Assembly: GCA_030695565.1 (NCBI GenBank) | Contig: JAUYRZ010000060.1 | Location: 62,001 to 126,000, forward strand | DNA from: Archangium sp. | GTDB lineage: Bacteria; Myxococcota; Myxococcia; Myxococcales; Myxococcaceae | Length of the DNA: 64,000 bases | Direction of reading: 5' to 3' | Part shown: piece by piece, positions 42,931-50,368 of the stretch | How the letters are laid out: each line of letters starts with the position of its first letter | How positions within the stretch are numbered: the stretch's first letter is position 1 | The notes under the pieces: model-generated | Database searches by the model: none | Told to the model about the DNA's origin: nothing | The model's input: only the letters and a program-made list of their open reading frames with translations | Program-made: the position numbers and the translations under genes

Positions 42931-44007
42931 ATGCGACTCAAGATTTCGCCGACCCAGTCGATGCCGGCCGCCCTCGCGCTCGCGCGCCTCCTCAAAATCA
43001 CCCCAAGAGAAGCGCTGAAGCTTCTCGCCGAACCCAGAATTCTCCCTGCCGAGCTCGATGACGCAGCCGCGCAAACCCTGAGTCAGCACGGGATCAGCGC
43101 CACGCCGGTCACCGTCCCCCCGACGACGAGCCGCTGCGCAACACACCCGAGCCTCACCGGCGAAGCTCCCTGCGAAGACTGCCGCACGCTGGTCTGCCCA
43201 CTCTGTCTTCCGCATTGCCGCACCTGCAGTGCACGCAGATCGACCGCAACACGCTGGAAACGAGTGCGAGTCGCCGTGCTGCTGACTGTCTTGCTGAGCC
43301 TCGGCACCTGGGGAGCGCTGCGCCAGCGCAAGCTCGCCCAACGCAACGCCTGGCTCAAACCGATCCGGGTCTCGGTGGTGCTGGCGAGCGCCGAGCCGAT
43401 CGACACGACGGTCACCACCGCCTGGAGCGACGGGCTCGCCTCACTCAACGAGTGGTTCACCGCCGAAGCAGAACGACTCGGTCTTCAGCTCCCGAACCCG
43501 ATCCACTTCGAGCTCGCCCCCACGACGGTGCTCGCCGAAGTGCCATCGCCGCCCGCTGAAGGCTCCGGTGAGTGGCTGCGCGACTCGCAAGAAGCGATCA
43601 GCCTCCGCTCGACGTTGAAGACGATCGCCGAGCGAGGACAAGCGGTGGGTGTCTTCGACCTGCAGCTCCTCATCGCGCTGCGGTCCGCCAACGGAGGCGC
43701 GCATCAAGTCGAAGGCCTCGGAGAAGCCGGCGGCACCATCGGCCTGGTCGAAGGCACCATCGGCGACACCGCGCTCACGCTGGAGCTGGTCGCAGCTGCG
43801 CACGAAGTCCTGCACTGCCTCGGCGCGAAAGATGGCTACGACGCGCAGGGCCACGCGCTTCCCCGGGGAATCATCGAACCCGGCTTCGCCGAGGTGATGG
43901 TGGGCGAAGTACCCCTGGGCCCGAACCAGGGACGCATTCCCAAATCACTGAGCGAAGTGCGGGTGGGTGAAGAGACCGCGCGAGAAATCGGCTGGAGCCC
44001 GCCATGA
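42931..44007 (+). CDS. Membrane metalloprotease of metzincin type with N-terminal Cys-rich zinc module
   Basis: A 358-aa protein. Residues 1-60 are an alpha/beta piece (LLKITPREALKLLAE) that looks like ribosomal-L7/L12-type domains. Residues 67-100 hold a B-box-like Cys/His module (CATHPSLTG..PCEDC..CPLCLPHCRTC). A membrane helix follows (about 112-127, VAVLLTVLLSLGTWGAL). The C-terminal catalytic-like region has HEVLHCLGAKD (His291, Glu292, His295, Asp301), the HExxHxxGxxD pattern of metzincins such as snapalysin. The zinc module probably faces the cytoplasm. Its stop overlaps the next gene (ATGA). Confidence 0.75.
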   Translation: MRLKISPTQSMPAALALARLLKITPREALKLLAEPRILPAELDDAAAQTLSQHGISATPVTVPPTTSRCATHPSLTGEAPCEDCRTLVCPLCLPHCRTCSARRSTATRWKRVRVAVLLTVLLSLGTWGALRQRKLAQRNAWLKPIRVSVVLASAEPIDTTVTTAWSDGLASLNEWFTAEAERLGLQLPNPIHFELAPTTVLAEVPSPPAEGSGEWLRDSQEAISLRSTLKTIAERGQAVGVFDLQLLIALRSANGGAHQVEGLGEAGGTIGLVEGTIGDTALTLELVAAAHEVLHCLGAKDGYDAQGHALPRGIIEPGFAEVMVGEVPLGPNQGRIPKSLSEVRVGEETAREIGWSPP

Positions 44008-44501
44008 AGACGAGCACGATCCTCGCCACGTTGCTGTTCCTTTCTTGCGGCAGCTCCTACGGCGGGCCGCGCTGCCGGGGCATCACGCTGAACACCGACC
44101 CCGCGACGCTTCCGCTGGGACCGAGGTCACCCGCGAGCGCCGGCTCGCTCAACCCGGCTTCGCCGTACCTCACGTACGTGCCCGAGCTGCCGTGTTGCCT
44201 GAACAATCCCGAGTACCGGGACGAGACGAGCTGCAGCGCGGTGGACTGCGACGCGCTCATTGAGCGGCTCACGTTCGCGCGGGTCGAAGGGCCCTTCGCC
44301 AACGAGCCCTGCGGCCGGCCCGAGTCACCGGGTGGCTCGACGTGCACGGTCCACCTGGATGAAGATCGAAGATCGTCGCGGTCAACGTCTTCTGCGCGGA
44401 CTGATGGACTGATCGATGAATGTCACCGCGCTCAATGCCTTCAGTCTCAGGTTTCATGCGTACCTGAGTCAGCACCATCCACGGCTCGCCGCGCTCTGTG
44501 A
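44004..44501 (+). CDS. Lipoprotein of unknown function with a probable 3' frameshift
   Basis: The literal frame gives 165 aa with lipobox LFLSCGS and several cysteines (for example PELPCCLNNPEY, CSAVDCDALIERL). Up to about 44360 codon use is normal, but the last 40 residues use rare-looking codons and overlap the next gene by 86 bp. One base out of frame, the sequence reads KIVAVNVFCAD followed by a stop at 44402-44404, with every codon ending in G or C. A one-base deletion near 44361-44372, where GAAGATC is repeated, would explain this. If corrected, the gene ends 11 bp before the next ATG. Function unknown. Confidence 0.65.
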   Translation: MKTSTILATLLFLSCGSSYGGPRCRGITLNTDPATLPLGPRSPASAGSLNPASPYLTYVPELPCCLNNPEYRDETSCSAVDCDALIERLTFARVEGPFANEPCGRPESPGGSTCTVHLDEDRRSSRSTSSARTDGLIDECHRAQCLQSQVSCVPESAPSTARRAL

Positions 44502-44838
44502 GGTCGATGACTCACACTCGTGGGAGCCCGGCGCGCTGCGGTTGGTGCTGGCAGACAACCTGACCATGTCCACACACCGAGACGAGCTCACCGTCTTCTT
44601 CGGGCCGACGCACGTTCATCTCGAAGACTTCGGTGCTGCGGTCGAACTCCTCGAGCGGATCGAGAACGAAGACGTGCTCGCAGTCGAGTGGCTCGATGGT
44701 TCGTCGTCGCTTTGCTCCGCGCTGAGTGACCGCGCCGATCCGCTCGTGGCGCCCGATTTGATCAACGGCACGCCCACCAGGATCAGCCTCACTTCATCCC
44801 GGGGCACCTATGACGCTGACCACGTTTGGCGGTATTGA
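44416..44838 (+). CDS. Small soluble protein of unknown function
   Basis: A 140-aa protein with no signal peptide, starting at ATG 44416. Mixed alpha/beta, with the segment DELTVFFGPTHVHLEDFG in the middle and acidic helices around it. The shape and the 'ELTVFFG..H.H' pattern remind me of small immunity-like proteins, but I cannot name a family. It sits between two small lipoprotein genes. Confidence 0.55.
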   Translation: MNVTALNAFSLRFHAYLSQHHPRLAALCEVDDSHSWEPGALRLVLADNLTMSTHRDELTVFFGPTHVHLEDFGAAVELLERIENEDVLAVEWLDGSSSLCSALSDRADPLVAPDLINGTPTRISLTSSRGTYDADHVWRY

Positions 44839-48223: not shown

Positions 48224-50368
48224 ATGCGCAGCCTGATCGCCATCGTCGCCCTCGCCGCTTCTTCCGCTCTGGCTGCTCCCTGCGTCGAGCTGCCTGTCCT
48301 CTTCATCGTGCAGGACAAGTCGGGCTCGATGAACTTCGCCCCTGATGGCACCACGGCCTCCACCACCAATCCCTCCAAGTGGAGCATTGCCCGCCAGGTG
48401 GTGCCGGCGCTCGCCAGCAACTTCAATAACCGCTTCCGCTTCGGCGCAGCGATGTACCCCCAGAGCACGACCACCTTCAACTGCACCACGGGCACGGTGG
48501 TCACGCCCATCGCCGACACCACCACGGGCATCACCAGCGCGTACAACACCGCGGTCCCCGGTGGCGGTACGCCGACGGCGGCCTCGCTCCTCGCCGTGCG
48601 GTCCCACCTGCTGGGCCAGGGCCTCACCACGCCGGCGTACGTGCTGTTGATCACCGACGGTCTGCCCAACTGCAACACCAGCCTCGACCCGAACGCCTGC
48701 TCGCCCACCACGCCTGGCTGCGGCCCCACGCCCGCGACCAGCACCTGCGCGCTGGGCTCGAAAGACTGCCTCGACAACAACGCCACCGTCTCGGCGGCGC
48801 AGCAGCTCTTCGCCGCGAACATCAAGGTGTTCGTGGTCGGCTTCGACAACGCCCTGACGGCCGGCAACAACAAGGCCGTGCTCGACGCGATCGCTTCGGC
48901 GGGCGGCACGGGCTCGGCGTACGTGGCCAACAGCCAGGCGCAGCTCACCTCGACGCTCAACACCATCGCGGCCAGCACGGCCACCTGCTGCAAAGACGTG
49001 TGCACGGCGGGCGCGGCGGTGTGCAGCGGCACGGGCGCCCGTTCGGTCTGCCAGATGGACACGGCGATCGGCTGCACCACCTGGACGACGCAGCAGTGCA
49101 ACACCGGCAGCACCTGCAGCAACGGCAGCTGCCAGGCCTGCACCAACACCTGCACGGCGGGCGCGGTGCGGTGCGCCAACGGTGATGCGCAGCAGTGCGT
49201 GGCCAACGCCCAGGGCTGCACCTCGTGGCAGACCGCTGAAGTCTGCGGCTACGGCGAGGTGTGCGCCGGCGGCAGCTGCAACTCCTGCCAGGGCTGTGCG
49301 ATGGGCGCTTCGCGCTGCACCGCGACCGGCGTCGAGACTTGCGAGTGGAGCGTGCTCTCCGGGTGTACGCAGTGGAGCGCGCGGGCCTGCGCCTCGGGCA
49401 GCACCTGCCAGGCGGGCAGCTGCACCAGCTGCAACACCACCTGCACCGCGGGCGCTCAGCGCTGCGCCGGCAACACCGTGCAGAGCTGCGTGGCGAACGC
49501 GGCGGGCTGCACCTCGTGGCAGAACGGCCAGACCTGCACCAACTTCTGCAGCGGCGGCGCGTGCGGCACCTGCGGCACCACCTGCACGGCGGGCCAGACC
49601 CGCTGCCAGGGCGCCTCGGGCGTGGAGACCTGCATCGTCGACGCGAACAACTGCCCCGCGTGGGGACCCACTCAGCAGTGCGCGCCCAACAACTTCTGCG
49701 AGAGCGGCGTGTGCAACATGTGCGCGACCAGCTGCACGCAGGGCAGCAAGCGCTGCGGTGCGAACGGCGCGACCGAAGAGTGCCGGCTCGACCCGATGGG
49801 CTGCACGGCGTTCGTGGCGACCGGTCAGTGCGACGTGGGCGCGGGTGAACGCTGCGACACGGGCGTGTGCATTCCCCCCTGTCAGAACGCGTGCACGCCG
49901 GGCGCAGGCCAGTGCCGCAACGGCCGCCCGGAGTCCTGCCAGCAAGGCCCCACGGGCTGCTTCATCTGGCGCGACGAGCCGGTGTGCGGAATGGATCAGC
50001 AGTGCGTGTCGGGCACGTGCCGCACGGTCTGTGCGAGCGACGAGTTCGAGACCTGCCCCCAGGGTGAAGTCTGCACGGGCCTGACGGAGGGCCGCTTCTG
50101 CCTGCCGGTCGATCCCGATGGCGGCACCGGTGGCGGCCTGGGTGGCGGCGCCGGTGGTGGTTCAGGCGGCGGCACGGGTGGCCTCGATGCGGGAAGCGGC
50201 ACGGGTGGTGGCAGCAACTCGAACGGCAGCGGTGAAGAGACCACGCCCGGTGGCCCCAGCCGCATCGGCGCCGTCGCGATGGGCTGCAACTGCAACTCGG
50301 TCGACGCAGGGTTGTTGCCGCTGCTCGCCCTGGGTTTGACGCTGCTGCGCCGCCGCAGCCGCAAGTAA
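48224..50368 (+). CDS. VWA-domain surface protein with Cys-rich repeats and MYXO-CTERM-like sorting tail
   Basis: A 714-aa protein with a signal peptide (LIAIVALAASSALAAP). Residues 22-255 are a von Willebrand A domain with MIDAS motif DKSGSMNF and later TDG. Residues 255-600 are Cys-rich repeats of about 40 residues with a 'C..TCTAGA.RC.G...Q.C' core and Trp in each. A Gly-rich linker then leads to the C-terminal tail: a Cys pair GCNCNS, a hydrophobic helix (GLLPLLALGLTLL) and RRRSRK. This matches MYXO-CTERM sorting signals, where the Cys motif directs processing and cell-surface anchoring, as in Myxococcus TraA. Role may be adhesion or cell-cell contact. Confidence 0.85.
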   Translation: MRSLIAIVALAASSALAAPCVELPVLFIVQDKSGSMNFAPDGTTASTTNPSKWSIARQVVPALASNFNNRFRFGAAMYPQSTTTFNCTTGTVVTPIADTTTGITSAYNTAVPGGGTPTAASLLAVRSHLLGQGLTTPAYVLLITDGLPNCNTSLDPNACSPTTPGCGPTPATSTCALGSKDCLDNNATVSAAQQLFAANIKVFVVGFDNALTAGNNKAVLDAIASAGGTGSAYVANSQAQLTSTLNTIAASTATCCKDVCTAGAAVCSGTGARSVCQMDTAIGCTTWTTQQCNTGSTCSNGSCQACTNTCTAGAVRCANGDAQQCVANAQGCTSWQTAEVCGYGEVCAGGSCNSCQGCAMGASRCTATGVETCEWSVLSGCTQWSARACASGSTCQAGSCTSCNTTCTAGAQRCAGNTVQSCVANAAGCTSWQNGQTCTNFCSGGACGTCGTTCTAGQTRCQGASGVETCIVDANNCPAWGPTQQCAPNNFCESGVCNMCATSCTQGSKRCGANGATEECRLDPMGCTAFVATGQCDVGAGERCDTGVCIPPCQNACTPGAGQCRNGRPESCQQGPTGCFIWRDEPVCGMDQQCVSGTCRTVCASDEFETCPQGEVCTGLTEGRFCLPVDPDGGTGGGLGGGAGGGSGGGTGGLDAGSGTGGGSNSNGSGEETTPGGPSRIGAVAMGCNCNSVDAGLLPLLALGLTLLRRRSRK

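What the first reader, a model, noticed from the sequence alone, without database searches (positions are those of the whole stretch)
42931..44007. Membrane metzincin-like protease with B-box-like zinc module
Seen: HEVLHCLGAKD (Asp as third ligand, as in snapalysin), one membrane helix and an N-terminal Cys/His module after an L7/L12-like piece. I know of no characterised protein with this order. Inference: a protease outside the membrane linked to a zinc-binding cytoplasmic domain.
Basis: partly seen in the sequence, partly recalled or inferred. Interest (0 to 1): 0.5.

Follow-up and report, generated by a model that had tools for sequence, protein, structure and literature searches.

The report
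Membrane-tethered metzincin protease with zinc module
This myxobacterial gene encodes a membrane-anchored zinc protease, predicted to fold like the animal ADAM and snake-venom enzymes, from a bacterial family not found in the curated protein libraries searched, here with an N-terminal metal-binding module in front of the membrane helix.

Summary
ORF 42931-44007 (+, 358 aa) has an N-terminal domain with the ribosomal L7/L12 C-terminal-domain fold, an eight-ligand Cys/His module resembling a B-box, one membrane helix, and a catalytic domain with HEVLHCLGAKDGY and a Met-turn. An AlphaFold2 model (pLDDT 88.5) of residues 140-358 matches adamalysin/reprolysin metzincins (Z 13.7). Relatives occur in Myxococcota, Beta-/Gammaproteobacteria and a Desulfobulbaceae bin; in a 79-row alignment both His, the Glu, Gly, Asp, Tyr and Met are invariant. 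No Pfam family and no NCBIfam family above cut-off covers them; the closest profile, M6, matches only the motif. The catalytic core is the constant part. The N-terminus varies: L7/L12-like plus B-box-like in 15 of 20 Myxococcota relatives read, a different CPxC ribbon in 3 of 80 scanned loci, mostly short tails elsewhere. Most likely this is a periplasm-facing, inner-membrane-anchored peptidase whose cytoplasmic module senses or docks something. Fold and metal-ligand set are well supported by prediction and conservation; activity, topology, substrate and regulation are inferred. No conserved gene neighbour was found. It is a new family of a known kind (metzincins with an Asp third ligand), not a new chemistry.

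The parts
42931..44007 (+). whole gene, 358 aa, membrane-anchored metzincin-like protein
   Evidence: ORF; relatives at 40-46% over nearly full length in 5 relative genomes; codon-position GC 0.70/0.53/0.77
42931..43110 (+). residues 1-60, L7/L12 C-terminal-domain-like fold (beta-alpha-alpha-beta-alpha-beta)
   Evidence: AF2 models; VIA-align to 1ctf Z 7.6, rmsd 1.8, 60 residues; ClpS about Z 6.5; hhalign to myxobacterial L7/L12 prob 52.9, E 1.4e-4 over 43 columns
43135..43227 (+). residues 69-99, B-box-like Cys/His module CxxHx8CxxCx4CxxCx3CxxC, eight potential ligands (two zinc sites inferred)
   Evidence: sequence; C69 H72 C81 C84 C89 C92 C96 invariant in the N-terminal alignment of 7; module present in 15 of 20 Myxococcota relatives read; Pfam zf-B_box 10.6 bits, below cut-off 24.1
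43264..43323 (+). residues 112-131, predicted single membrane helix
   Evidence: hydropathy 1.83 at residue 112, the highest 19-residue window of the protein; model helix 97-139
43348..44004 (+). residues 140-358, metzincin (adamalysin/reprolysin-like) catalytic domain
   Evidence: VIA-align 6x5x Z 13.7, rmsd 3.6, 172 residues; Foldseek 1dth E 1.2e-5
43801..43839 (+). HEVLHCLGAKDGY: predicted zinc ligands H291, H295, D301, general base E292, Tyr303 two residues after the Asp
   Evidence: 79 of 79 rows; Asp third ligand and a Tyr two residues after it described for other metzincins in PMC12237041 (passages)
43888..43908 (+). AEVMVGE: Met-turn, Met323 (residues 320-326)
   Evidence: Met 79 of 79, preceding Glu (E321) 78 of 79
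43882..43887 (+). point (between P317 and A320) where the window protein lacks the roughly 8-residue PxxPQ stretch nearly invariant in relatives
   Evidence: alignments; one relative, L100, also has a shortened loop here

Best explanation
It is a single-pass, N-in inner-membrane protein whose C-terminal domain is a zinc peptidase of the metzincin clan facing the periplasm. H291, H295 and D301 hold the catalytic zinc, E292 activates water, Tyr303 may act as the transition-state tyrosine described for other metzincins, and Met323 forms the Met-turn under the metal. It most likely cleaves exposed segments of envelope or periplasmic proteins near the membrane surface (quality control, or shedding/processing of anchored proteins). 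The cytoplasmic L7/L12-like plus zinc module most likely serves as a docking or sensing unit that positions or regulates the enzyme: it is optional in the family, and another zinc ribbon takes its place elsewhere. Shown by prediction and conservation: fold, ligand set, membrane helix, varying N-terminal modules. Inferred: activity, topology, substrate class, regulation.
For: Model pLDDT 88.5; 366 of 1000 aligned PDB chains reach Z>=5 and 167 reach Z>=8, and the 50 listed entries are all adamalysin/reprolysin/ADAM type. HExxHxxGxxDxY and Met in 79 of 79 rows and in the 30 loci checked from profile searches. Core profile finds 21 of 156 Myxococcota genomes, each with one copy, one copy in 6 of 6 other genomes or records, and 4 of 299 genomes of the phylum of G179, one of them G179 itself. 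dN/dS 0.03-0.29 in 5 close pairs. L7/L12-like fold. Module pattern in 15 of 20; CPxC ribbons in 3 of 80 loci. B-box-like modules precede membrane regions in other myxobacterial proteins and occur in mycobacterial rhomboid proteases (PMC2989971, section 9).
Against: No activity data and no characterised close relative. Charge rule does not settle topology for the window protein (+6 N side, +5 C side). No conserved neighbour that would name a substrate or partner. The window protein departs from consensus near the site: G302 where 75 of 79 have Lys, and a missing PxxPQ stretch before the Met-turn. Model coordinates could not be read, so zinc-site geometry was not measured.
Confidence: 0.7

Rival explanations
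1. It is a divergent, membrane-tethered member of peptidase family M6 (immune inhibitor A / thuringilysin type), not a separate family.
For: NCBIfam TIGR03296 (M6 domain) matches 55 of 79 members at E<=0.1, best 1.1e-5; hhalign of the family with myxobacterial M6-like proteins prob 93.9, E 1.6e-7; both carry HExxHxxGxxDxYD.
Against: Where positions were printed, the matches cover 22-40 residues around the motif at 12.8-17.1 bits against a cut-off of 110.8; the hhalign match is 35 columns; Met-turn surroundings differ. The PDB rows listed are adamalysins, though absence of M6 from 50 rows excludes nothing.
Confidence: 0.12
2. It has the metzincin fold and metal site but no proteolytic role: a scaffold or metal sensor.
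For: A metal site alone proves no catalysis; substituted zincins occur in other families (PMC3650047, abstract and passages).
Against: The general base Glu292 is invariant in 79 of 79, as are Tyr303 and the Met-turn methionine; inactive zincins typically lose such residues (general knowledge).
Confidence: 0.1
3. Inverted topology: catalytic domain in the cytoplasm and Cys/His module outside.
For: Arginines flank the window protein's helix almost equally on both sides; 16 of 79 rows have the more positive C-side.
Against: 49 of 79 have the more positive N-side; most relatives seem to have only a short N-tail before the helix (read by eye, output partly cut); an L7/L12-like domain and reduced-Cys ligands suit the cytoplasm (general knowledge).
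Confidence: 0.1
4. The window copy is a decaying paralogue of an active family.
For: Missing PxxPQ stretch and G302; no match in any of the 5 genus-mates searched.
Against: Open over its full length with all ligands and all eight Cys/His kept; the loop is also shortened in L100.
Confidence: 0.1

Closest known systems
Adamalysins/reprolysins and ADAM sheddases (MEROPS M12B)
   Same: predicted catalytic-domain fold (Z 13.7); HExxHxxGxx plus Met-turn; ADAMs are also membrane-anchored
   Different: third ligand Asp, not His; 10-16% identity in the listed alignments; anchor at the N-terminus, not C-terminal (ADAM topology recalled); no disintegrin or other animal modules; no Pfam reprolysin match except one member at E 0.0016
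Snapalysin (M7)
   Same: Asp third ligand (PMC12237041 passages)
   Different: snapalysins are very small (PMC3890501 passages) and secreted (recalled); profile hits only in 2 of 79 at best E 0.012 (Pfam) and 0.0067 (NCBIfam)
M6 immune inhibitor A / thuringilysins
   Same: Asp ligand (PMC12237041 passages) and GxxDxYD motif
   Different: match limited to the motif, far below cut-off
Igalysins (M64) and CLCA/CLCA_X
   Same: Asp in the zinc motif; Tyr two residues after it in M64 and CLCA (PMC12237041 passages; PMC3650047 section 8)
   Different: motifs HExxHxxxGxxD and HExxHxxxD differ in spacing
Mini-zincins M94 / PF06262 (Acel_2062)
   Same: HExxHxxGxxD (PMC3890501 passages)
   Different: no Met-turn, and the motif lies at the C-terminus
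Mycobacterial rhomboid Rv0110 type
   Same: B-box-like module in a membrane protease; the same two Pfam names, Siva and zf-B_box, appear as weak hits (PMC2989971 section 9)
   Different: rhomboid with 7 membrane helices, an intramembrane serine protease (class recalled)

Membership tests
Metzincin clan (MA(M)) | HExxHxxG/NxxH/D zinc motif | tested here: met
   79 of 79 rows
Metzincin clan (MA(M)) | Met-turn methionine after the third ligand | tested here: met
   M323 in 79 of 79
Metzincin clan (MA(M)) | common catalytic-domain fold | tested here: met
   predicted model, Z 13.7 to 6x5x over 172 residues; a prediction, not a solved structure
Metzincin clan (MA(M)) | catalytic zinc bound and proteolysis | not testable with these tools
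   needs protein
Reprolysin/adamalysin (M12B) | third ligand His (HExxHxxGxxH) | tested here: not met
   Asp in 79 of 79
Reprolysin/adamalysin (M12B) | Pfam reprolysin profile match | tested here: not met
   only 1 of 79 matched Reprolysin_4, at E 0.0016
M6 (TIGR03296) | score over 110.8 bits across the domain | tested here: not met
   10 members scanned singly: 6 hits at 12.8-17.1 bits, 4 without a hit
Snapalysin (M7) | profile match | tested here: not met
   2 of 79 in each library, best E 0.012 and 0.0067, none convincing
Mini-zincin M94 | no Met-turn, motif at C-terminus | tested here: not met
   Met-turn methionine present, 57 residues follow the Asp
Ribosomal L7/L12 C-terminal domain | fold | tested here: met
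   1ctf Z 7.6, rmsd 1.8, 60 residues; Z under 8 alone is modest, Foldseek E 0.39 for 1ctf
Ribosomal L7/L12 C-terminal domain | Pfam PF00542 match | tested here: not met
   none at E<=1 in P0001; not among the 17 families listed for A2 at E<=0.1
B-box zinc finger (PF00643) | score over 24.1 bits | tested here: not met
   10.6 bits, 12.0 in L010; 1 of 79 at E 0.026
B-box zinc finger (PF00643) | Cys/His spacing for two zinc sites | tested here: inconclusive
   eight conserved ligands; metal content untested

The most novel reading that the evidence does not exclude
A new bacterial metzincin family (adamalysin fold with an Asp ligand) works as a transmembrane signalling sheddase: exchangeable cytoplasmic zinc modules, among them a ribosomal-stalk/ClpS-like domain joined to a B-box-like module, sense the cytoplasm and switch an external protease on or off.
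Probability: 0.25. Interest if true: 0.65.

Novelty: new variant of a known kind. Interest (0 to 1): 0.45.

Why it matters
ADAM-type fold enzymes tethered at a membrane are best known from animals. A single-copy family of such enzymes in Myxococcota and Proteobacteria (an Acinetobacter baumannii copy is annotated 'hypothetical protein'), without a Pfam model and with differing cytoplasmic zinc modules, offers a simple system to ask how a cytoplasmic module could control an envelope protease. It would also add a case of Asp as third ligand in an adamalysin-like fold.

Tried and rejected
Snapalysin, M6, M64, CLCA_X and M94 membership: compared and not accepted (see Membership tests and Closest known systems; M64 and CLCA_X only by published motif spacing). 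Sequence search of solved structures found nothing usable with the single protein or the profile. Absence of snapalysin, M6 or M64 chains among the 50 VIA rows is not evidence. Gene neighbours: all-against-all comparison of ORFs in 93 loci gave antisense shadows, broad superfamilies (ABC, GGDEF-like, named by eye) and close-genus synteny; of eight window neighbours only a kinase and a histidine kinase had hits near relatives, at scattered positions; gltS and the overlapping downstream ORF had none. Rfam: nothing in the window. Phage and plasmid collections: hits only in Acinetobacter records that look like chromosome by gene content, so a mobile-element link is not claimed. Literature searches (eight searches of the open-access library) listed no paper that I recognised as being on this family; most subscription papers are not held. 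Papers: passages of PMC3890501, PMC12237041, PMC9304148, PMC3650047 (plus its section 8) and PMC2989971 (plus its section 9) were read; others only in listings.

Rows dropped: of 80 loci, L028 (cut at the contig end) and L083 (masked bases) were left out of A2; A2 is 78 loci plus the window protein. One search found 489 relatives but kept the best 80. In one search, 20 of the 21 Myxococcota genomes were read (G155 was not fetched). dN/dS was computed for five chosen close pairs only. The flank-charge count uses all 79 rows.

Full report
What is there. The ORF at 42931-44007 (+) starts with ATG and encodes 358 residues. Pfam and NCBIfam find nothing above cut-off; the best Pfam names are Siva (11.9 bits) and zf-B_box (10.6 bits, cut-off 24.1) over the Cys/His stretch. 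The genome looks myxobacterial: the nearest named relatives are Archangium, Pyxidicoccus and a Myxococcaceae bin. Upstream on the same strand lies a sodium/glutamate symporter gene (gltS); the next ORF downstream overlaps the stop by four bases.

A real family. A single-protein search of 60 related genomes found matches in 9 including the window's own, eight of them over the catalytic part; the ninth (G018) is only the Cys/His module. An alignment of eight (A1) then found 489 relatives in the species-genome collection, of which the best 80 were kept: Myxococcota, Beta- and Gammaproteobacteria and one Desulfobulbaceae bin. The 79-row alignment A2 has invariant H291, E292, H295, G298, A299, D301, Y303, P311, G313 and M323. 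The search patterns lay over the HExxH and Met-turn regions, so I checked 30 loci found by profile searches (some are repeat fetches, one or more the window gene, five were genomes chosen through): all keep HExxHxxGxxDxY and a Met-turn methionine (28 by strict expression, two with EWM by eye). With the A2 profile the core occurs in 21 of 156 Myxococcota genomes, one copy each, and in 4 of 299 genomes drawn from the phylum of G179, one of which is G179 itself. With the A1 profile 73 of 117 genomes of the order matched, but by query range only 13 of these are the protease; the rest are the Cys/His or L7/L12-like module. Five close pairs give dN/dS 0.03-0.29.

Fold and metal site. AlphaFold2 with A2 gives pLDDT 88.5. 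Foldseek against the PDB gives snake-venom metalloproteinases, ADAMs and TACE as best matches (1dth E 1.2e-5); VIA-align gives Z 13.7, rmsd 3.6 over 172 residues with 6x5x for residues 140-358, and the 50 listed entries are all of this type. The motif HEVLHCLGAKDGY and the AEVM Met-turn lie in this domain. Asp as third ligand is rare in metzincins and is named for snapalysins, thuringilysins and igalysins; in igalysin IgAse a tyrosine two residues after the Asp is proposed as a switch (PMC12237041, passages). The family here has the same D-x-Y spacing in 79 of 79. I could not read model coordinates, so ligand distances are not measured.

Relation to M6. TIGR03296 (M6 domain) rings in 55 of 79 members, but weakly: where positions were printed, matches cover 22-40 residues around the motif at 12.8-17.1 bits, cut-off 110.8. 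A profile comparison with myxobacterial M6-like proteins is significant (prob 93.9) but over 35 columns. I read this as motif-level kinship within the clan, not membership.

The N-terminus. Residues 1-60 are modelled as beta-alpha-alpha-beta-alpha-beta and align best with the L7/L12 C-terminal domain (1ctf, Z 7.6, rmsd 1.8, 60 residues), with the related-looking ClpS fold next at about Z 6.5. Foldseek E-values are weak (0.1-0.4), and hhalign with true L7/L12 gives prob 53, E 1.4e-4. Residues 69-99 hold seven Cys and one His in a B-box-like order. The module is present in 15 of 20 Myxococcota relatives read, including G145, whose catalytic motif follows the proteobacterial pattern by eye. It is absent in G016, G090, G067, G078 and G139. 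Among the 80 named loci it is in six (L010-L015), and three others (L084, L087, L088) carry a different CPxC...CPxCG ribbon before the same helix; L020 and L035 have a second hydrophobic stretch instead (read by eye). In a quick tree L015 falls in another Myxococcota subclade than the window and the Archangium rows, so the module is probably old in Myxococcota and lost several times (inference). The Cys/His module also precedes membrane regions in many unrelated myxobacterial proteins, and mycobacterial rhomboid proteases show the same weak B-box and Siva hits (PMC2989971, section 9).

Topology. One membrane helix, residues about 112-131. Net charge in the 15 flanking residues favours an N-in orientation in 49 of 79 rows, is equal in 14 and opposite in 16; for the window protein it is +6 against +5, undecided.

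Peculiarities of the window copy. It has Gly at 302 where 75 of 79 have Lys, lacks about eight residues (PxxPQ) before the Met-turn and four in the N-terminal domain. None of five genus-mates has a match. L100 has a similar shortened loop. These may mean relaxed or altered function of this copy.

How it works, most likely. A membrane-tethered metzincin peptidase outside the cytoplasmic membrane, acting on envelope proteins close to the membrane, with a varying cytoplasmic zinc module for docking or sensing. Class of enzyme: well supported. Everything about substrate and control: inference; no conserved neighbour was found.

Verdict. A new family of a known kind with an unusual architecture; interest moderate.

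Noticed in passing
window 48224-50368 (+): 714-aa ORF that looks like a von Willebrand-type domain followed by many Cys-rich repeats and a C-terminal GCNC-helix-RRR tail resembling a MYXO-CTERM sorting signal (recalled; no search made).
   Followed up: no
window 44004-44501 (+): ORF overlapping the protease stop codon by four bases, with a signal-peptide-like start; no Pfam or NCBIfam match and no homologue near the relatives compared. It overlaps the next ORF (44416-44838) and its codon-position GC is odd, so it may be frameshifted.
   Followed up: partly
G000:C126:25596-26045 and G000:C105:99356-99625: Tandem L7/L12-type domains in non-ribosomal-looking ORFs of the window's own genome; L198 is another protein with an L7/L12-like N-terminus.
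   Followed up: no
L084, L087, L088: A separate CPxC...CPxCG zinc ribbon joined to the same membrane protease in gammaproteobacterial bins: apparent independent gain of an N-terminal zinc module.
   Followed up: partly
records CP035931.1 and CAKLQH020000005.1: Database entries called plasmid and phage whose gene content next to the homologue (topA, uup, slyX, ribosomal protein genes) looks like Acinetobacter chromosome.
   Followed up: partly
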